This document shows, piece after piece, positions 13,397-32,140 of a stretch of DNA of 37,297 nucleotides. This DNA comes from Thermomicrobiaceae bacterium (lineage in GTDB: Bacteria; Chloroflexota; Chloroflexia; Thermomicrobiales; Thermomicrobiaceae). Within the stretch, counting starts at the first letter, position 1; each line of letters opens with the position of its first letter. The notes beneath the pieces were generated by a model. It made no database searches, was not told the DNA's origin, and was given only the letters and a program-made list of their open reading frames with translations. The position numbers and the translations under genes are program-made. The stretch is taken from positions 1 to 37,297 of the forward strand of contig SLMJ01000183.1 in NCBI GenBank assembly GCA_007133615.1, written 5' to 3'.

Positions 13397-14153
13397 GTTC
13401 GCCTTCCTCTCCGATGCAATTGACTGATGCAGGACGAGTTGTTGTGCCGCGTCCATATCTCGGTTAGCGTCTGATAAGTTCGTGATGCGCCGTCGAGCGA
13501 GGTCTAGTGCACGGCCCGAGCAGAGCTGCGGACGCCGTACCCGTATCCAAACAACTGAAATGTCGGTGATCTGGAACCATGATAACAGACGAAACTTGAT
13601 CGCCACGTTAGGGAGTGCAAACCGTCGGGCCTCGAATAACGGAAACATGGCCAGGAAACAATGTTGCGGTTTGCGAATGGGTGCGCCTTGCACGCGCCGG
13701 GGAAGAAAGTTGACTCAGGTCGATTGGTTTCGGCTACACTTTTTTGCCGGGGAATCCAATGATCTGAATAGTTCTCATCAAAGTATTGCCTAATTTCACC
13801 AAATTCCTTGAGAACGCTCCGGTCGAATTCAAAAACCTGGCTTTGCGCATGCGGACACTGCGCGCGGCATATCTTGTCATTCTCCGCAATCATCTATACA
13901 ATGCGACCGATTACTTGCGGATCAGGCGGAATACGATTACGCAATGGTGAGAGGGGGCACCGCGAGTTCCAGACTGTGTGAATTCTTGAAGACGGACCTT
14001 GATTCTGGCGTGATGTGAGACACCGATCTGAGGAACAGCCGGGTGGTGGGAGTTGTTCTTATTGGGATCGGCACAGTTGCGCCGCTTCAGCAGTCAGCAA
14101 TAACTGCTGGGATTTCATATCAACCGTGTGGTGGAGAGGAGCTATTGCCTGCT
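13397..14153. other. 757-nt gene-free region upstream of the ABC importer
   Basis: No convincing gene was found. The middle part (about 13735-13960) is visibly richer in A/T than its surroundings. It contains one good promoter facing the ABC importer (13874-13902), leaving about 245 nt of leader before the binding-protein start. Minus-strand sequence next to 13396 carries the ribosome site of the LCP gene (13402-13410). A 129-codon minus-strand frame at 13504-13893 lacks a ribosome site and any recognisable family. Confidence 0.6.
13874..13902 (+). promoter_or_regulatory. Sigma70-type promoter for the peptide ABC importer
   Basis: TTGTCA (13874-13879) and TACAAT (13897-13902) match consensus at 5 of 6 positions each and are 17 bp apart. 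It points toward the binding-protein gene at 14154, with a predicted leader of about 245 nt. Confidence 0.6.
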
Positions 14154-16013
14154 ATGTCTGATAAGGGGAACGGTGCCGGCAGGTACCTGAACGAGGACGT
14201 ACTCGGTATGTCAATGACCCGTCGGTCGATCCTGCGCAAAGGTGCGGCTCTGGGTGTAAGCCTCCCTGTCGCGGCTTCGATTCTCGCCGCGTGCGAAGTC
14301 GATGATGACGACGAGGTCGTAGACGACACCGACGATGACGAACCGGCTGTCGAGACCGATGACGATGATGAGGTCGCCGAAGAGCCGGACGACGACGATG
14401 ATGAAGAGCCGGTTGAAGAAGACGACACCGATGTCGAAGTAGACGATGACCACGAGAGCATTTTCGGCGATGACTACGAAACCCCACAGAATCAGGGCGG
14501 GCAGATCATCGAGGGCGCCTTCTCTGATGCTGAAACGATGAGCGGCATTATGACGCAGGACACGGCGTCTTCCCGCATCATTTCCATGATTACGAAGTCG
14601 CTGATTATCGCTCATCCGAGTACGACTGAACCCGAACCGGAACTTGCCGAGTCGTGGGACATCACCGATGATGGTCTGGAGTACACCTTTAACCTGCGTG
14701 AGGATGTCACCTGGCACGACGGCGAGCAATTGACCGCCGAGGATGTCGTCTTCACGTTCGAGACCCACCTTGATCCGGATACCGGCTCGCCACGAACTGC
14801 TCAGCTCTCCGCCCGGATCGATACGATCGAGGCGCTGGATGACTACACCGTGCAGTTCACGCTGAATATGCCGGCTGCACCATTCCTGCTGCAGGATATG
14901 GTCAACTACATTGTTCCGGAACATATTCTGGGAGATGTTGCCCCGGCTGATCACGCGTCTCACCCATATTCGACTGGTGAGCAGGGTGTGACGATTGGGT
15001 GCGGTCCATTCCAGTTTGAGGAATGGGTATCAGGCGATCACGTCACGCTGGTCAAGTACGAGGATTACTATCGCGGCGAACCGAACATCGACCGATGGAT
15101 CCGTCGCATCGTTCCGGACCAGACCGTGCTGGCACAGCAGATCGGCACCGGTGAAGTTGACTATGGGGCTGTTCAGGAATCTGATTACGAGAACCTCGAT
15201 CAGCAGGAAGATATCGACGTCACGGTGTTCGATACGTTCAACTTCACCTTCTACGCATATCAGCTGAACCCAGAGCGCAGCGAGTTGTTCCAGGAGCCGG
15301 AAGTTCGTCAGGCACTGGTCTACGGTCTTGATCGGCAGGCCATGGTCGAAGCAATTCGATTTGGATTCGGCGAGGTCGCTCGCGGCAGCATGCCTGTCGC
15401 GTCCTGGGCATATGACCCGGATGCGCTGGACCGTGACTATGAATTCGATCCAGATCGGGCTCGGGAGATGCTCGATGAGGCCGGCTGGGTTGAAGGCGAC
15501 GACGGAATTCGCGAACGAAACGGCGAGCGGTTCTCCTTCGAGATCTACACTAACGCTGGCAACGAGATTCGCGAACAGTACATCGCCATCATGCAGGAGC
15601 AGTGGCGAGAGATCGGTGTTGAGTGCATTCCGCAGACCGAAGAATGGAGTGCGTTCCTCGATCGCATCACCGGAACGCGTGACTTCGACATGTTCCTGGT
15701 TGGCTTCTCCTGGTCTGTTGACCCGCATCAGGAAGCGATGTGGCATACGGATTCCGCCGAAGGCGGGTTCAATATGAATGAATACAGCAATCCGGAGGTC
15801 GATGACCTGCTTGCCCAGGGGCTGGAAACCACGGATCAGGATGAACGGCGCGAGATTTACACCGAGATGCAGAACATCCTGCTCGAGGACGTTCCCAGTG
15901 TGATTCTCGACTTCCCACAGGGAATCTATGGGGTAAACCAGCGCTGCCATAACGTCTTCCCCAACGACGTCGCGTTCACTGTGAACGCGCACGAGTGGTG
16001 GGTTGACGAATAG
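14154..16013 (+). CDS. ABC transporter substrate-binding protein, family 5 (peptide type), Tat lipoprotein
   Basis: This 619-aa extracellular binding protein carries a Tat-type lipoprotein signal: 'MTRRSILRKGAALG' then 'SILAAC' with lipid Cys C47. A very acidic spacer (about 48-105) is almost entirely Asp, Glu and Val. The SBP_bac_5 domain follows, with 'LAESWDITDDGLEYTFNLREDVTWHDGEQLTAEDVVFTFE' recognisable in short blocks such as 'WHDGEQLTAEDV'. It delivers peptides or other solutes to the two permeases downstream. The start is uncertain: ATG 14154 follows GGAGAGGAG by 12 nt and gives an n-region like that of the Tat protein at 28589; ATG 14208 or 14214 is also possible. Confidence 0.9.
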   Translation: MSDKGNGAGRYLNEDVLGMSMTRRSILRKGAALGVSLPVAASILAACEVDDDDEVVDDTDDDEPAVETDDDDEVAEEPDDDDDEEPVEEDDTDVEVDDDHESIFGDDYETPQNQGGQIIEGAFSDAETMSGIMTQDTASSRIISMITKSLIIAHPSTTEPEPELAESWDITDDGLEYTFNLREDVTWHDGEQLTAEDVVFTFETHLDPDTGSPRTAQLSARIDTIEALDDYTVQFTLNMPAAPFLLQDMVNYIVPEHILGDVAPADHASHPYSTGEQGVTIGCGPFQFEEWVSGDHVTLVKYEDYYRGEPNIDRWIRRIVPDQTVLAQQIGTGEVDYGAVQESDYENLDQQEDIDVTVFDTFNFTFYAYQLNPERSELFQEPEVRQALVYGLDRQAMVEAIRFGFGEVARGSMPVASWAYDPDALDRDYEFDPDRAREMLDEAGWVEGDDGIRERNGERFSFEIYTNAGNEIREQYIAIMQEQWREIGVECIPQTEEWSAFLDRITGTRDFDMFLVGFSWSVDPHQEAMWHTDSAEGGFNMNEYSNPEVDDLLAQGLETTDQDERREIYTEMQNILLEDVPSVILDFPQGIYGVNQRCHNVFPNDVAFTVNAHEWWVDE

Positions 16014-22129: not shown

Positions 22130-22774
22130 GTGACTGACAAATGGAAACGCGACCCTGCGTTTGACTACGATCGGTTCATAACGACCGGACCAGAGGCGAT
22201 CGACCGGGAGATCGAGCAGATCCAGCAAAAGCGTGGATATTTTGAGCGATTGCTGGCGCGGTTCACTTCGCCGAAGAGCCAATCTCGAAAAGATGATGAG
22301 GCCCAGGCGCCGTGCTACGCAGAGCAGGCGCTTCCGGGATCGGATTTCACTCGACAGAAGCTCGTCAACGCAGACTTTCGGAATGCCGATCTGAAGCAGT
22401 CCGTGTTCACCGGAGCCTTGCTACACGGTGCAATGTTCTGTGACGCAGATTTGCGAGAAGCGAACCTGGCTGAGGCCGTTCTCACCGGTGCCGATCTCCG
22501 TGGGGCAAACCTTTCCGGGGCAAATCTGATCGGCGCTGACTTCTCCGGAGCGGATCTCCGCGGAGCGAATCTCCAGGGTTCGTATCTCTGGGGAGCCGAT
22601 TTTCACGATACCGATCTACTGGATGCGCTGCTTGATGGCGCCTATGCCGGTGGATCGATATTCAGCCATGCCCGGAATCTGACGCTGGAGCAATTCCGAT
22701 CCACGATTCACGATGAAACTGGCGCATACCGCCTATCGATGCTTCCGGACCAACCGAAAAAGCACGATCCATAG
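22130..22774 (+). CDS. Pentapeptide-repeat protein
   Basis: This 214-aa protein has a charged helical N-terminus (1-60), then about 20 A(D/N)LxG pentapeptide repeats between about 68 and 168 (for example 'ADLRGANLSGANLIGADFSGADL'-type units), and a 45-residue non-repeat tail. Repeats of this kind fold into a right-handed square helix; some mimic DNA and protect gyrase, most have unknown roles. The GTG start follows GGGGCGGA. No gyrase or resistance gene is adjacent, so a protective role is not supported by context. Confidence 0.88.
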   Translation: MTDKWKRDPAFDYDRFITTGPEAIDREIEQIQQKRGYFERLLARFTSPKSQSRKDDEAQAPCYAEQALPGSDFTRQKLVNADFRNADLKQSVFTGALLHGAMFCDADLREANLAEAVLTGADLRGANLSGANLIGADFSGADLRGANLQGSYLWGADFHDTDLLDALLDGAYAGGSIFSHARNLTLEQFRSTIHDETGAYRLSMLPDQPKKHDP

Positions 22775-26399: not shown

Positions 26400-26945
26400 C
26401 TAGAGCGGCTCGGATTCGATGCTCGGATCCCACGGCAAGTGGCCGTTGCTGTGCGGACAGACGTGCCCTTCAGGGCCGATCACCTCACCGCAGCGTGGGC
26501 AGCGCGGTCGTCCGGCGGCAACAACTTCGGCGATCTCTTCAGCGAGGCCCTTTGAGGCTTCCAGAGTCGAGCGACCGGTGAAGATGGGGTCGGCGTCGTT
26601 TTCTTGTTCGATATCGTGCGCAAAGAAGGCGACAACGCGGACATCTTCGTCGTACCCGATCGCCATTTTGCCGACCTGATACTCCGGCGCGGTTGGATCG
26701 ACATCCATCAGAGGGGAGAGGCGACGGGACTCGAGATCGTCTGTGTTCACGCCGGTAGTCTGGAGTTGCTCGAGCAACTGTTCGATCGCAAGGCCGAGGG
26801 CCTGCAGCTGCTCTTTTTCCATCCAGAGTGAGATCACATCTCCTGGCACGCCAGCGATCAAACGGAAGCGCCGCTGGCCTGGCTCACCGATCGCTTCGGC
26901 GGCAAGAATCTCGAGCTGATTGTATTCGTGTTGCTCGAATACCAC
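26400..26945 (-). CDS. DUF3090 family protein
   Basis: This 181-aa protein matches DUF3090 in length and ending. The N-terminal part (to about 140) includes 'ISLWMEKEQLQALGLAIEQLL' and 'MAIGYDEDVRVV'. The C-terminus has a zinc-ribbon-like 'CPRCGEVIGPEGHVCPHSNGH' with two CxxC/CxH pairs. In Actinobacteria the family often neighbours a histidine-phosphatase-like gene; here it stands alone. GTG 26945 has AAGGAG 9 nt upstream, and TATAGT on the minus strand (26991-26996) may be its -10 box. Function unknown. Confidence 0.85.
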   Translation of the reverse strand: MVFEQHEYNQLEILAAEAIGEPGQRRFRLIAGVPGDVISLWMEKEQLQALGLAIEQLLEQLQTTGVNTDDLESRRLSPLMDVDPTAPEYQVGKMAIGYDEDVRVVAFFAHDIEQENDADPIFTGRSTLEASKGLAEEIAEVVAAGRPRCPRCGEVIGPEGHVCPHSNGHLPWDPSIESEPL

Positions 26946-27162: not shown

Positions 27163-28473
27163 ATGGACAATCGCGTATTAATCGGAGTTGCCGGCCTGTT
27201 TGCCGTTGTTGTGGTCGTCGCGCTCGTCTTTGCCCTCAGTAACGGCGATGATGACGAAAACGATGTGGCCGAAGAACCAACCCCGACCGAAGATGTCGCG
27301 GACGTTCCAGGTGAGGACGACGCGGTACCTACCGAGGATGACGACGCCGAGCCTGAACCGGTCGACGATGCTGATGATCAGCAGGACGAGATCGCCGAAG
27401 AAGTTCCCGAAGACGAGATTCAGTTGCCAGAAGGGGAACCCGAGCGGCCACAGAGCGATCAGATGGCTTATGGCTTCAATATCGCGTGGCGTGCGGATGA
27501 GGACGGCGGTCAATTCAACGAATACACCCGGCAGGCAGTCGATACTGCCGGATTCAACTGGGTGAAGTTTCAGGTGCACTGGAGCGAAATTCAGCGCGAG
27601 CCAGACTGGTGGGATCCTGCGCCGGTTGACCGGATGATGGAGATCTACGAAGGCACTGATACGCGCATCATGATTTCGGTCGTTGGTGCTCCGGACTGGG
27701 CCCGGGACCCGGAAGGTGAACAGCTGTTGGCCGATTTCGAGCCATTCGTCGGCTTCATGTCATTCATGGCTGATCGATATCGTGGCCGGGTCGACGCCTG
27801 GGAGATCTGGAACGAACAGAACATGGCCCACGAAATGCACGGCACCGTGCGGGTCAGTGACTATGCGTATCTACTGGAAGCCGGCTATCGCGGTGTAAAG
27901 GATGCTGATCCCGATGCACTGGTTGTCTTCGGTGGACTGACGCCAACTGGCATCAACGATCCCGAGGTCGCGGTAAACGACGTAGAGTACCTTGAAGCGT
28001 TTTACCTGTACGGCGATGGTCACTATGCTCAGTTCTTTGACATCATGGGTATGCACCTGAATGCAACCAACAACCCGCCAGACACTACATATCCTGAGAA
28101 CCCTGGTCCTGGTGAGTGGTCTGATCACAACAGCTTCTACTTCCTGCGGGGGCAGGATCTCCGGCAGGTTATGTCTGAATTTGGGGATGATCGAGAGGTC
28201 TGGGTGACCGAGTTCGGCTGGACTACTGAGAACCAGGCTGGGGGCTACGAGTACGGCGCCGACAACACCGAAGAAGATCAGGCGAACTATCTGGTGGGTG
28301 CGTTCGATGTCGCCCGGGAACAGATGCCCTGGATCTCTGGCATGTTTGTCTGGAATCTGAACTTCACAACGCTCGTAACTCCGGAAGACGAGAAGTACCC
28401 CTGGTCGGTTCTCAACAACAACTGGAGCCCGAGACCGGCTTATAACGCTTTGCAGGAGATGCCCAAGCCGTAG
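27163..28473 (+). CDS. Membrane-anchored glycoside-hydrolase-like TIM barrel with acidic linker (copy 1)
   Basis: This 436-aa surface protein has a single N-terminal membrane helix (about 5-26, no lipobox Cys), an Asp/Glu/Pro-rich linker (about 28-98) and a clan GH-A-like barrel (about 100-436). The acid/base Glu is E218 in 'EIWNEQN' and the nucleophile E350 in 'WVTEFGW', a pattern seen in GH39/GH5-type enzymes. It should cleave a glycan outside the cell; the substrate is not readable. It is followed by a near-identical-domain paralog at 28589 and separated from it by a hairpin. No strong ribosome site precedes the ATG (GAAGGGAAG is 14 nt away). Confidence 0.85.
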   Translation: MDNRVLIGVAGLFAVVVVVALVFALSNGDDDENDVAEEPTPTEDVADVPGEDDAVPTEDDDAEPEPVDDADDQQDEIAEEVPEDEIQLPEGEPERPQSDQMAYGFNIAWRADEDGGQFNEYTRQAVDTAGFNWVKFQVHWSEIQREPDWWDPAPVDRMMEIYEGTDTRIMISVVGAPDWARDPEGEQLLADFEPFVGFMSFMADRYRGRVDAWEIWNEQNMAHEMHGTVRVSDYAYLLEAGYRGVKDADPDALVVFGGLTPTGINDPEVAVNDVEYLEAFYLYGDGHYAQFFDIMGMHLNATNNPPDTTYPENPGPGEWSDHNSFYFLRGQDLRQVMSEFGDDREVWVTEFGWTTENQAGGYEYGADNTEEDQANYLVGAFDVAREQMPWISGMFVWNLNFTTLVTPEDEKYPWSVLNNNWSPRPAYNALQEMPKP

Positions 28474-28502
28474 TTCGATTTCTTGTGTGTAAGACAGATC
28501 TG

Positions 28503-28526
28503 GCGCCCGTCAAATTCGACGGGCGC
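28503..28526 (+). terminator. Hairpin between the two glycosidase-like paralogs
   Basis: GCGCCCGTC (28503-28511) and GACGGGCGC (28518-28526) form a perfect 9-bp stem with a 6-nt loop, 29 nt after the first stop. No T tract follows. A second repeat, CCGATT (28538-28543) with AATCGG (28555-28560), lies just before the second gene. Confidence 0.55.
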
Positions 28527-28588
28527 ACGTGTGTAGCCCGATTCCATTGATGTAAATCGGATCGCAACTGTAAAGGCAGGAATCACGG

Positions 28589-29983
28589 ATGACATCTCGC
28601 CACTTCGACTTTTCCTTCGTACAACCACTTCTGGACGCCGACGCCCGGCTTACCCGCCGTCAGGTGCTCCAGCGAGGCGCTATGCTGGGCATCTCGATTC
28701 CAGCCGTTGCCGGACTACTCGCGGCATGTGGCGGGGATGACGACGAGGAAGAACTCGAGGAGCTCGGCGAACCAACGCCGGAGGAGCTGGTTCAAGACGA
28801 AACCGACGACGAACCGGATGACGGACCGGAGCCGACCGCTGAAATCGAGGACGACGACAGCGAGCCCGAAGAATCTGACGAACCGGAAGAAGATGATGAA
28901 CCGGATGAAGTCGTCGAGACTGACGAGCCGCAACTGCCCGACGGTGAACCTGAGCGCCCACAGAGTGACCAGTTGGCGTACGGGTTCAACATCGCATGGC
29001 GGGGAGACGAGGACGGGGATCAATTCAACGAGTGGACCCGTCAGGCGCTGGATACCGCGGGGTTCAACTGGATACGGTTTCAGACCCACTGGAGTGAGAT
29101 CCAGCGCGAGCCTGACTGGATGGATCCGCTGCCGCTTGATCGAATGATCGACGGTTACGAAGGAACGGATATCCGGATTCTCGTCTCGGTTGTTGGGGTG
29201 CCGGACTGGGCACGTCATCCGGATGATATCCAGTTGCTCGAGAACTGGGAATCATTCGGTGATTTCATGGCGTTTCTGGCGGATCGATACCGCGGGCGTG
29301 TCCATGCCTGGGAGATCTGGAACGAGCAGAACATGGCGCACGAGATGCATGGCACTGTTCGGATCAGCGATTACGCCTATCTGCTCTCCGCAGGATTCCA
29401 GGGTGTTAAGGATGGCGACCCGGACGCGCTAGTCGTCTTCGGTGGACTAACGCCGACTGGCGTCAACGATCCGGCGATTGCGGTCAACGATGTCGATTAC
29501 CTGCAGGAGTTCTACACCTTCGAGGAAGGTGCATACCGGGAGTTCTTCGACATCATGGGAGCGCACCTGAACGCCACCAACAATCCGCCGGACACGAGTT
29601 ACCCGGACAATCCCGGCCCTGGTGAGTGGTCCGACCACTCGAGCTTCTACTTCCTGCGCGGGGTGGATCTACGCGCCGTCATGGACGAGTTCGGTGATGA
29701 GCGTCCGATGTGGGTAACCGAGTTCGGCTGGACAACCGAGAACCAGGCTGAGGGGTATGAGTACGGGGCGGACGTCACCGAAGAAGATCAGGCGAACTAT
29801 CTGGTCGGTTCGTTCGACGTGGCTCGCGAACAGATGCCCTGGATCACCGGCATGTTCGTCTGGAATCTGAACTTCACCACGATTACCCCGCCGGAAGATG
29901 AAAAGTACCCGTGGTCCGTCCTGAATGCAGACTGGTCGCCGCGGCCGGCGTACACAGCGCTGCAGCAAATGCCGAAGCCTTGA
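28589..29983 (+). CDS. Tat-lipoprotein glycoside-hydrolase-like TIM barrel with acidic linker (copy 2)
   Basis: This 464-aa paralog of the preceding gene shares the barrel from 'GEPERPQSDQ' to 'ALQ(E/Q)MPKP' with few changes, but is attached differently. A Tat signal 'LTRRQVLQRGAMLG' (21-34) ends in 'LLAAC' with lipid Cys C47. The acidic linker spans about 50-118. Catalytic residues are E246 (EIWNEQN) and E378 (WVTEFGW). Export by Tat implies folding before export. The gene ends one base before the stop of the convergent AIR-synthase-like gene. It probably hydrolyses a surface or environmental glycan. Confidence 0.87.
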   Translation: MTSRHFDFSFVQPLLDADARLTRRQVLQRGAMLGISIPAVAGLLAACGGDDDEEELEELGEPTPEELVQDETDDEPDDGPEPTAEIEDDDSEPEESDEPEEDDEPDEVVETDEPQLPDGEPERPQSDQLAYGFNIAWRGDEDGDQFNEWTRQALDTAGFNWIRFQTHWSEIQREPDWMDPLPLDRMIDGYEGTDIRILVSVVGVPDWARHPDDIQLLENWESFGDFMAFLADRYRGRVHAWEIWNEQNMAHEMHGTVRISDYAYLLSAGFQGVKDGDPDALVVFGGLTPTGVNDPAIAVNDVDYLQEFYTFEEGAYREFFDIMGAHLNATNNPPDTSYPDNPGPGEWSDHSSFYFLRGVDLRAVMDEFGDERPMWVTEFGWTTENQAEGYEYGADVTEEDQANYLVGSFDVAREQMPWITGMFVWNLNFTTITPPEDEKYPWSVLNADWSPRPAYTALQQMPKP

Positions 29984-29984
29984 T

Positions 29985-31004
29985 TTACTGATCAGCGAAG
30001 TATCTGGCAATCTCGTCAACGGCGAACTCCGGAATCTTCCCCGGTACGCCGTTGACGATCAGGGTTCGCTCGGACGGATTGTCGGTCAGCCTGCCGATCT
30101 GGTGAGCTGGAATGCCGGATTCTGAGAACGACTCCAGCGCAGGCTGGACTGACTGCTGGTCGACGACCGCGAGCAACGCGCCCGATGCGATCAACCCCCA
30201 CGGATGAATTCCCAGCTCGCTGGTGATCGCGCTTGTCTCAGCATGTATGAAAACGGAACTCTGATCGATCTGGATGCCGTAGCCTGTTGCATCCGCGATT
30301 TCTCGCAACCCAGTTCCCAATCCGCCTTCGGTTGGATCATGCATTGCTCGGACATCCACGTCACGGTTGCTGGTCAATCTCTGAGCGTAGGAAACCACGC
30401 TGATCCCCGGATCGCGTGCGAACGTCCGTGCCCGGTCGAGCATGTCAGGATCGATCGTTTCCCGGAGGGTGTCCTCAGCATCTGTGGCGAGAATTGCCGT
30501 ACCTTCGACCGCGATCCCGCCGATCATCAGCACAGCGTCCCCGGGACGGGCTCGAGTCGGGTCAACCAGACGTTGCTCGTCGGTTACGCCGATCATCTGC
30601 CCAACGAGTATCGGACGATCCAGCCCTTCGGTGATCTCGGTATGTCCACCGATCAGGGTACAGCCAAGGCCGGCAGTTGCATCCCGAATGCTTGAAAACA
30701 GAGTAGACACGAGTTCAGGCGTGGTGTCGTTCTCAGGTAGCAAGGCGGTGACGAGCAGCCACTTCGGGGCGGCACCCATACAGGCGATGTCGTTGGCATT
30801 GATGTTCACCAGATACCAGCCGGCATCGTCAGTCGGGAATGTAATCGGGTCCGTTTTAAAGATCAGAACCTGTTCGCCTACCCGGACTGCGGCAGCGTCT
30901 CTGCCGATTCCGGGGCCAACTAGCACATCAGGATCGTGGGGAAGATCCTGCAGCATCGCATGAAGCAGATCATGTGGCAATTTGCCCACTGGAAGCGATC
31001 CCAT
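29985..31004 (-). CDS. AIR-synthase/HypE-fold protein
   Basis: This 339-aa cytoplasmic protein has the PurM/HypE/SelD/ThiL fold: a glycine-rich 'GPGIGRDAAAV' near 30-40, 'TDPITFPTD' (metal/ATP Asp), 'VNINANDIACMGAAP' (family 'xxxNDIAxMGAxP'), 'LIGGHTEIT' and 'AMHDPTEGGLGTGL' in the second domain. It lacks the C-terminal Pro-Arg-Ile-Cys tail of HypE, ending in YFADQ, so it is not a true hydrogenase maturase. Members bind ATP and make phosphorylated intermediates. Its ATG shares one base with the stop of the upstream phosphofructokinase gene (TGATG), and AAGGAG precedes it. Substrate unknown. Confidence 0.82.
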   Translation of the reverse strand: MGSLPVGKLPHDLLHAMLQDLPHDPDVLVGPGIGRDAAAVRVGEQVLIFKTDPITFPTDDAGWYLVNINANDIACMGAAPKWLLVTALLPENDTTPELVSTLFSSIRDATAGLGCTLIGGHTEITEGLDRPILVGQMIGVTDEQRLVDPTRARPGDAVLMIGGIAVEGTAILATDAEDTLRETIDPDMLDRARTFARDPGISVVSYAQRLTSNRDVDVRAMHDPTEGGLGTGLREIADATGYGIQIDQSSVFIHAETSAITSELGIHPWGLIASGALLAVVDQQSVQPALESFSESGIPAHQIGRLTDNPSERTLIVNGVPGKIPEFAVDEIARYFADQ

Positions 31005-32140
31005 CAGCTCTCCTTGCCGTGGGCATGCCAGGGTTCGCCGACGCATACGTCCATGACGCGCGCGCTTCGGATCAACGGGTGGCTGATTGGAACGTGCCGT
31101 GGACCTCTTGTCGCAACCACGAGCGGAACCGATGTCATATCGGTACTGGACTGACCCATCGGATCCCGACTAATCGACACCATCCGGTTTGTCTCTCCTT
31201 CGGCGAGGAGATCCACTGCGTAGGTGCCCATCATTGTTCCGAGGGCTCGATCGCGTGCCGTAGGTTCACCGCCTCGTTGCAAGTGGCCGAGCACAACTGA
31301 TCGGACTTCCTGCTCCAACTGTTGGGACAGCTCGTGTTCCAGCCATGATCCGATTCCGCCGAAGCGCTTCTGATACCACTCATCGCCAATCGTCTCGTAG
31401 ATCGCACGGCCGTCGACAGGTTGGGCACCCTCGGCGATGGCGATGATCGTGAAGTAACTTCCGAGCCGGGCACGCCGCTCGATTTTGTCTTTGATGCTGT
31501 CCATGTGGAATGGCAGTTCGGGGATGAGAATAATGTCTGCGCCGCCAGCAACGCCGGCGTAGAGCGTGATCCACCCGGCGGTTCGGCCCATCAGCTCGAC
31601 GATCATCACACGGTGATGGCTTTCCGCCGTCGTGTGGAGCTTATCGATCGCTTCGGTAGCCGTGGTAACCGCGGTATCGAAACCGAACGTCACTTTCGTT
31701 CCACGCACGTCGTTGTCAATCGTCTTGGGTATCCCGATGACCTGAACGCCCTTGCGGGAGAGTTCGTTGGAAATGGACATGGTGCCGTCGCCACCGATTA
31801 CGACCACTGCGTCGATTTCGAGGTCCTGGAACCGTTGAATCACGTCATCGGAGTGGTCGCGTGGGGCGTCCTCACCGGCACTCGTGTTCTGAAAGGAGAA
31901 CGGGTTGCACCGGTTGCTTGCCCCCAGAATTGTCCCGCCTCGGGGCAGGATCCCTCGTACTGATGAGAGGTTTAGCTCCTCGAACTCGCCGGTGATGCAG
32001 CCCTCGAAGCCGTTGCGGAACCCGATCACGCTCCAGCCGTGGTCGAGGATCGCGGACTTCGTGACCGCCCGGATGACGGCGTTGAGACCTGGCGCGTCAC
32101 CACCGCCGGTCAGTATTCCGATCCTGCGTATTTCGCTCAT
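31004..32140 (-). CDS. pfkA: 6-phosphofructokinase
   Basis: This 378-aa PfkA-family enzyme phosphorylates fructose 6-phosphate in glycolysis. It has 'TGGGDAPGLNAVI' (11-23), the donor site GGDGT with G119 in the position that is Gly in ATP-using and Asp in PPi-using enzymes, and 'PKTIDND' with K139 and catalytic D142. Gly plus Lys is the group III combination known from ATP-dependent actinobacterial enzymes, so ATP use is expected. 'MGRTAGW' and 'LGHLQRGG' are also conserved. The start at 32140 follows GGGGGAAG. It is translationally coupled to the AIR-synthase-fold gene. Confidence 0.94.
   Translation of the reverse strand: MSEIRRIGILTGGGDAPGLNAVIRAVTKSAILDHGWSVIGFRNGFEGCITGEFEELNLSSVRGILPRGGTILGASNRCNPFSFQNTSAGEDAPRDHSDDVIQRFQDLEIDAVVVIGGDGTMSISNELSRKGVQVIGIPKTIDNDVRGTKVTFGFDTAVTTATEAIDKLHTTAESHHRVMIVELMGRTAGWITLYAGVAGGADIILIPELPFHMDSIKDKIERRARLGSYFTIIAIAEGAQPVDGRAIYETIGDEWYQKRFGGIGSWLEHELSQQLEQEVRSVVLGHLQRGGEPTARDRALGTMMGTYAVDLLAEGETNRMVSISRDPMGQSSTDMTSVPLVVATRGPRHVPISHPLIRSARVMDVCVGEPWHAHGKES

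What the first reader, a model, noticed from the sequence alone, without database searches (positions are those of the whole stretch)
27163..29983. Tandem duplicated glycosidase-like genes with swapped anchors
Seen: both barrels share nearly all active-site blocks (EIWNEQN, WVTEFGW), but copy 1 has a plain membrane helix and copy 2 a Tat signal with lipid Cys. The acidic linkers differ in sequence. Inference: duplication followed by replacement of the export and anchor region, sending the same activity through Sec and Tat routes.
Basis: partly seen in the sequence, partly recalled or inferred. Interest (0 to 1): 0.5.

Follow-up and report, generated by a model that had tools for sequence, protein, structure and literature searches.

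The report
Duplicated surface glycosidase, re-anchored two ways
A soda-lake-type bacterium carries two side-by-side copies of a PslG-like sugar-cutting enzyme; a close relative still has one copy with what looks like the older lipid anchor, and it seems that one copy later lost that anchor while the other gained a different export signal.

Summary
Two tandem ORFs encode barrels 80% identical (281/353), copy 1 with a Cys-free membrane helix, copy 2 with a Tat leader plus lipobox. The barrel models confidently and matches PslG (GH39) best; the catalytic glutamates are invariant in 56 of 56 aligned sequences. The tandem occurs in 4 of 5 genomes of the genus. The fifth, which branches first, has one copy at the same locus, with a Sec-type lipobox on a leader homologous to copy 1's. 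In 20 of 20 orthologues outside the genus a Cys follows the leader (19 fit the lipobox pattern). So the likely ancestor was a Sec lipoprotein. Copy 1 kept that leader but lost the Cys; copy 2 gained a 25-residue Tat/lipobox leader of the kind used by family-5 solute-binding proteins. The acidic linkers are a genus trait, also seen in solute-binding proteins. Not settled: whether the single-copy relative predates the duplication or lost copy 2; topology of copy 1; substrate. Ordinary enzyme, unusually readable retargeting history.

The parts
27163..28473 (+). copy 1: PslG-like glycosidase with N-terminal hydrophobic anchor, 436 aa
27175..27240 (+). copy 1 hydrophobic leader/helix (V5-S26), Cys-free; homologous to the lipobox leader of the single-copy relative
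27241..27468 (+). copy 1 acidic linker
27469..28470 (+). copy 1 catalytic barrel
27814..27816 (+). copy 1 Glu218, putative acid/base (WNE)
   Evidence: invariant in 56 of 56 aligned sequences; aligned with PslG WNE
28210..28212 (+). copy 1 Glu350, putative nucleophile (TEFGW)
   Evidence: invariant in 56 of 56 aligned sequences; aligned with PslG TEWGW
28503..28526 (+). GC-rich hairpin between the copies (9-bp perfect stem, 6-nt loop), possible terminator of copy 1 but without a T run
   Evidence: whole intergenic z -2.07; 7 of 200 shuffles fold as well; not listed by the terminator scan; similar inverted repeats seen by eye in G010, G012, G013
28589..29983 (+). copy 2: PslG-like glycosidase, Tat-type lipoprotein, 464 aa
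28655..28729 (+). copy 2 Tat/lipobox leader core RR...AAC (25 residues), solute-binding-protein type
28730..28978 (+). copy 2 acidic linker
28979..29980 (+). copy 2 catalytic barrel, modelled (with the last linker part) at mean pLDDT 93.2
29324..29326 (+). copy 2 Glu246, putative acid/base
29720..29722 (+). copy 2 Glu378, putative nucleophile
26400..26945 (-). DUF3090 gene, conserved left neighbour
29985..31046 (-). AIR-synthase-like gene, conserved right neighbour, convergent
14043..16013 (+). family-5 solute-binding protein carrying the same leader class as copy 2 (example of the donor class, not shown to be the donor)

Best explanation
A single-copy PslG-like (clan GH-A) glycosidase, exported by Sec and held on the outer face of the membrane by an N-terminal lipid, was duplicated in tandem in a lineage of Thermomicrobiales-type Chloroflexota known from soda lakes. 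Copy 1 kept the old leader but lost the lipobox Cys; its hydrophobic stretch, now more hydrophobic than in the single-copy relative, probably stays uncleaved and holds the enzyme in the membrane. Copy 2 lost the old leader and most of the old linker and acquired a Tat leader with lipobox of the type used by family-5 solute-binding proteins, so it is probably folded in the cytosol, exported by Tat and then lipidated. Both barrels keep the catalytic pair and most likely act as retaining beta-glycosidases on a cell-envelope or biofilm polysaccharide. Shown: duplication, conserved locus, leader similarities, catalytic residues, fold match. Inferred: order of events, export routes, membrane topology, activity, substrate.
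For: Barrel tree: copies 1 and 2 are two clades (100/99 and 100/96), each with the same 4 species; the G011 single copy is their sister (91/77). In a 7-protein tree G011 is sister to the other 4 genus members (99/99); 6 of the 7 single-gene trees agree. In G011 the AIRS-like gene follows the single glycosidase directly, and no second close copy was found in that assembly. Tandem in 4 of 5 genus genomes; in G010 by an exact 61-bp overlap of contig ends. In 20 of 20 orthologues outside the genus a Cys follows the leader; 19 fit the lipobox pattern and the script called the twentieth (L045) 'none', Pro being at -2. Copy-2 leaders score 43.8-56.5 bits on a profile of 14 own-genome leaders; 0 of 100,000 full shuffles reach them. 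12 of 13 leader-bearing proteins scanned are SBP_bac_5. The leader class occurs in outgroup solute-binding proteins. TatC, Lgt and LspA genes are present. Model pLDDT 93.2; PslG best hit, Z 29.9 over 308 residues at 2.8 A.
Against: The barrel data alone do not reject G011 grouping with copy 1 (AU p 0.204) or with copy 2 (p 0.222). The ProRS tree puts G011 beside G000 with low support (42/83). G011 is 70% complete with 5% contamination, and its two contigs overlap at 95%, not 100%. The 14 profile leaders came from the best hits to copy 2 itself, so that sample leans towards copy 2; in solute-binding proteins chosen without regard to the leader, 5 of 7 genus leaders and 3 of 9 outside ones are 25 residues long, the others 24. 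With only the h-region shuffled, 0, 13 and 75 of 100,000 reach the score for the three leaders. No donor gene was found by DNA search; the only other hit was 66 bases at E 8e-4 within the linker. Copy 1 has possible SPase I sites (AL-S/N here, AL-A/G in G012 and G013), so release is not excluded. Pfam GH39 matches neither window protein.
Confidence: 0.7

Rival explanations
1. The duplication is older than the G011 split and G011 lost copy 2; Cys loss in copy 1 followed the split. The leader history is the same, only the date changes.
For: AU test does not reject G011 + copy 1 as a clade (p 0.204); the G011 leader resembles copy 1.
Against: Best barrel tree puts G011 outside both copies (91/77); at 11 fixed copy-1/copy-2 differences G011 matches copy 2 at 6, copy 1 at 4, neither at 1; needs an extra loss.
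Confidence: 0.2
2. Copy 1 is not membrane-anchored: signal peptidase I cleaves it after the hydrophobic stretch and the enzyme is released.
For: Small residues at -3/-1 near the end of the helix (ALS|NG; ALA|GNG in G012 and G013) (sequence). In a haloarchaeon, Cys-to-Ser mutants of Sec substrates with putative lipoboxes appear processed, perhaps by SPase I (PMC2945643, passages).
Against: 22-23 residue uncharged run, mean Kyte-Doolittle 2.93-3.10 in 4 of 4 copy-1 leaders, higher than G011's 2.55, more like a stop-transfer helix; no cleavage predictor was run.
Confidence: 0.25
3. Copy 2's Tat-like leader arose step by step from the old Sec lipobox leader, without capture from a solute-binding protein.
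For: A separate Sec-to-Tat-like change seems to have happened in genus g5 (RR(T/R)FL leaders in L041, L044, L045). The G012/G013 copy-2 leader scores least (43.8 bits).
Against: Those g5 leaders run 15-17 residues from RR to C; copy 2's is 25, as in the 14 own-genome leaders profiled, with the same P-containing core, and the linker was replaced with it.
Confidence: 0.12
4. The two copies now cut different polysaccharides and the anchor difference is incidental.
For: 11 fixed differences, e.g. 99 D/H and 214 M/A, near conserved W96 and H215.
Against: None at invariant or nearly invariant columns; catalytic residues identical.
Confidence: 0.2

Closest known systems
PslG, endo-beta-glucosidase of Pseudomonas aeruginosa (CAZy GH39)
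   Same: Best sequence, profile and fold match; the Glu pair aligns (WNE, TE-GW). PslG is a retaining endo-beta-glucosidase with nucleophile Glu276 and acid-base Glu165 (PMC11912335, passages) and sits mainly at the inner membrane (PMC9075953, passages).
   Different: About 20% identity; here the gene sits beside DUF3090, AIRS-like, PFK and ProRS genes, not in a polysaccharide cluster; tandem, with acidic linkers and two export types; the aligned part of PslG ends at residue 361.
Bacteroides cellulosilyticus WH2 GH39 (5jvk)
   Same: Next fold match after the PslG entries, Z 29.0.
   Different: 22% identity, larger protein, gut symbiont.
Family-5 solute-binding proteins (SBP_bac_5) of the same genome
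   Same: Leader class and acidic linker of copy 2.
   Different: Mature domain is a transporter binding protein.
Retargeting of duplicates by change of N-terminal signal (general phenomenon, recalled)
   Same: Paralogues sent to different places by leader change.
   Different: Here a single-copy relative keeps the probable ancestral lipid anchor, and two separate events are visible, Cys loss and leader capture.

Membership tests
Clan GH-A retaining glycosidase | (beta/alpha)8 barrel, acid/base Glu after strand 4 (NE), nucleophile Glu at strand 7 (definition recalled) | tested here: met
   Model has eight strands; W133-N134-E135 follows strand 129-132, E267 lies in strand 263-268; 56 of 56 aligned sequences conserve them
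GH39 / PslG subgroup | Closest solved relatives are GH39 enzymes by sequence and fold | tested here: met
   PslG E 1.3e-32 (profile); the top 4 rows of both fold lists are PslG entries and the GH39 enzyme 5jvk
GH39 / PslG subgroup | Match to Pfam GH39 (PF01229) | tested here: not met
   Neither window protein matches at E <= 0.01; 6 of 56 aligned sequences match weakly, best E 1.3e-4. Filed as PslG-like, not as a formal GH39 member; no CAZy models on hand
GH39 / PslG subgroup | Retaining hydrolysis of a beta-glycan | not testable with these tools
   needs an assay
Tat lipoprotein (copy 2) | RR motif, moderate h-region, lipobox Cys | tested here: met
   TRRQVLQ...LLAAC, mean KD 1.68; by pattern only
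Tat lipoprotein (copy 2) | Export needs TatC; Cys lipidated | not testable with these tools
   TatC, Lgt, LspA genes present
Sec lipoprotein (copy 1) | Lipobox Cys | tested here: not met
   No Cys in the protein; no alternative start
Sec lipoprotein (single-copy relative G011) | Lipobox Cys after hydrophobic leader | tested here: met
   ...VILALGSC by pattern

The most novel reading that the evidence does not exclude
In this haloalkaline-lake genus the duplication split one surface glycosidase into two pools: a protein-anchored Sec pool and a pre-folded, Tat-exported, lipid-anchored pool targeted like the abundant solute-binding proteins, so that cutting outside at high pH is coupled to uptake. 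The genus would then give a natural before/after pair (G011 against the rest) for how export routes are exchanged.
Probability: 0.2. Interest if true: 0.5.

Novelty: new variant of a known kind. Interest (0 to 1): 0.4.

Why it matters
It gives a polarised example of how a surface enzyme changes export route and anchor: a relative with the probable ancestral state, two derived states side by side, and a plausible donor class for the new leader. That makes testable whether leader exchange changes where the enzyme works, and why some extremophiles route so many lipoproteins through Tat.

Tried and rejected
Alternative start giving copy 1 a lipobox: rejected. Replacement of copy 1's anchor: rejected, leader homologous to G011's. 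Acidic linkers as part of the swap: rejected, they are a genus trait. D+E is 0.40-0.53 in 9 of 9 genus copies; of the 20 outside orthologues one search gave values for 16: 15 at 0.00-0.13 and L038 at 0.24 (L045 printed 'no'; L026, L042 and L043 were not printed). Solute-binding proteins show the same contrast: 0.58-0.68 in 7 genus proteins, 0.04-0.18 in 9 of G016 and G017 (30 loci given, 25 rows printed, 7 without an RR..C leader, and I set aside L233 and L248, whose pattern match is not a leader). A DNA-level donor for copy 2's leader: none found in the own genome. Dating by dS: useless, mostly saturated. NCBIfam: no match. Pfam on the C242 paralogue: no match. Promoter and terminator scan: no more sites than shuffles, and the intergenic hairpin not among them. 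My Tat pattern labelled 6 of 20 outside orthologues Tat; I keep L041 and L044 and add L045, which the script called 'none', and set aside L030, L031, L035 and L037 by eye because RR is misplaced or runs straight into a strongly hydrophobic stretch.

Rows dropped before a count: L018 from the leader profile (different length; no Pfam match; 14 of 15 used, these 15 being the loci fetched of 40 leader-only places). From the tree: L023, L024 (same loci as L051 and L052), L064 (5' cut), L085 (short), and L004, L005, L050 (remote). L073, L078 and L080 have unreliable N-termini. The 56-row alignment holds the two copies and 54 of 64 usable relatives. Papers: searches gave listings and one search found 0; none listed is about this locus by title, and the searches were narrow.

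Full report
What is there. The stretch holds two + strand ORFs, 27163-28473 (436 aa) and 28589-29983 (464 aa), 115 bp apart. From DE(I/P)QLP onward they are 281/353 identical without a gap. Upstream of that point the leaders and linkers differ. Copy 1 begins MDNRVLIGVAGLFAVVVVVALVFALS, with no Cys in the whole protein and an in-frame stop at the seventh codon upstream. Copy 2 has LTRRQVLQRGAMLGISIPAVAGLLAAC with its only Cys at residue 47.

What the barrel is. Pfam gives nothing for copy 1 and a GH5 match below the curated cut-off for copy 2; NCBIfam gives nothing. By sequence the best solved relative is PslG (3.1e-10 for copy 1; 1.3e-32 with the profile of 56 sequences). The model of copy 2's barrel (353 residues, mean pLDDT 93.2) matches PslG best (Foldseek E 1.6e-18; Z 29.9, 308 residues, 2.8 A), then the GH39 enzyme 5jvk (Z 29.0). 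GH1 enzymes follow at Z 26-27, so the shared barrel accounts for much of the score. Glu135 and Glu267 (model numbering) are invariant in 56 of 56 aligned sequences, the two copies and 54 of 64 relatives, and align with PslG's WNE and TE-GW. PslG's acid-base and nucleophile are Glu165 and Glu276, and it is a retaining endo-beta-glucosidase (PMC11912335, passages). Pfam GH39 matches neither window protein, so I call them PslG-like.

Where it occurs. In the order, 32 of 61 genomes have a match at E <= 1e-20. The own genome holds five such barrels: the two copies, one on C242 with an extra N-terminal region, and two remote ones. CSSed bins belong to a study of Cock Soda Lake, pH 9.9 and 55 g/L salt in the brine (PMC6704655, passages). 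The window's own source is not named.

Locus. In the genus 5 of 5 genomes have DUF3090 on the left and the AIRS-like gene on the right. Of the 20 outside orthologues 16 have the AIRS-like gene within the 1.5 kb fetched and 8 have DUF3090 (some loci are cut by contig ends). It is an old position. The tandem is on one contig in G000, G012 and G013, and in G010 follows from an exact 61-bp overlap of contig ends. In G011 the single gene is followed directly by the end of the AIRS-like gene, and no second close copy was found in that 70%-complete assembly; its contigs overlap there at 95% over 185 bases.

History. In the barrel tree (66 rows) copy 1 (100/99) and copy 2 (100/96) are clades with the same four species each, and G011 is their sister at 91/77, short of the star. 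The AU test does not reject the alternatives (p 0.204 and 0.222). Seven concatenated proteins put G011 first in the genus (99/99); 6 of 7 single-gene trees agree, ProRS does not. At 11 fixed differences G011 matches copy 2 at 6, copy 1 at 4 and neither at 1. Most likely the duplication came after G011 split; loss of copy 2 in G011 is possible. Either way, on this species tree, the loss of Cys in copy 1 came after that split and before the other four diverged.

Leaders. In the 20 orthologues outside the genus a Cys follows the leader in all 20, and 19 fit the lipobox pattern. G011's leader ends VILALGSC and shares 14-15 of the first 26 residues with the three copy-1 leaders compared (2, 2 and 0 of 100,000 shuffles). 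The four copy-1 leaders lack the Cys and are more hydrophobic (2.93-3.10 against 2.55). Copy 2's leader runs exactly 25 residues from RR to C, as in 14 of 15 own-genome leaders read. These 15 were fetched as best hits to copy 2 itself (of 40 places that match its N-terminal part only), so the sample leans towards copy 2. A profile of the 14 scores the copy-2 leaders 43.8-56.5 bits (their own scores, each included in the profile, are 53.6-76.6); full shuffles never reach that in 100,000, and h-region-only shuffles reach it 0, 13 and 75 times. Of 13 of these leader-bearing proteins scanned, 12 are SBP_bac_5 and the exception, L018, has a different leader length; L013 and L014, cut by contig ends, were not scanned. 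In solute-binding proteins picked without regard to the leader, 5 of 7 genus leaders and 3 of 9 outside ones (L224, L225, L250) are of the 25-residue kind, the others have 24. So the class is older than the duplication. No particular donor was found.

Linkers. D+E is 0.40-0.53 in 9 of 9 genus copies; in the 16 of 20 outside orthologues measured it is 0.00-0.13 in 15 and 0.24 in one. Solute-binding proteins show the same contrast, 0.58-0.68 in 7 genus proteins and 0.04-0.18 in 9 outside ones. The acidity is a genus trait, plausibly linked to the haloalkaline habitat (inference).

How it likely works. TatC, Lgt and LspA are encoded. Copy 2 is then probably folded inside, exported by Tat and lipidated. 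Copy 1 probably stays as a membrane-anchored protein: most bacterial Cys-to-Ser lipoprotein mutants stay tethered by the uncleaved signal, though some are cleaved by SPase I (PMC2945643, passages). PslG is also found mainly at the inner membrane (PMC9075953, passages). The substrate is unknown; a cell-envelope or biofilm polysaccharide is my best guess. Purifying selection acts on both copies: in the one unsaturated within-genus comparison, G012 with G013, dN/dS is 0.025 for copy 1 and 0.046 for copy 2. The hairpin at 28503-28526 may end copy 1's transcript, but it lacks a T run, the scan does not list it, and the whole intergenic stretch folds only moderately better than shuffles (z -2.07).

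Verdict. It is an ordinary enzyme family with an unusually readable history of export retargeting. Listings showed no paper that by its title describes this locus; the searches were narrow.

Noticed in passing
window 28503-28526; G010, G012, G013 intergenic: GC-rich hairpin between the two copies, seen by eye in all four tandems with differing stem letters, no T run; may separate the transcripts.
   Followed up: partly
L041, L044, L045 (genus g5): Orthologues with RR(T/R)FL Tat-like short lipobox leaders, a clade at 100/100 among Sec-type relatives: an apparent second, independent Sec-to-Tat change.
   Followed up: partly
L003 and orthologues (about 590 aa): Paralogue with the same barrel after about 230 residues of GGL-x-FGYPIT-type repeats; L003 has no Pfam match at 0.01; looks LGFP-like by eye (recalled).
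   Followed up: no
L214-L217, L219: The one Cpn60 found per genus genome is only 56-67% identical to the window genome's, while RpoB is 92-96%.
   Followed up: no
own genome, 40 places: Forty places match copy 2 only in its leader and linker; 12 of 13 scanned are family-5 solute-binding proteins with highly acidic linkers.
   Followed up: partly
window 22130-22774: Pentapeptide-repeat protein.
   Followed up: no
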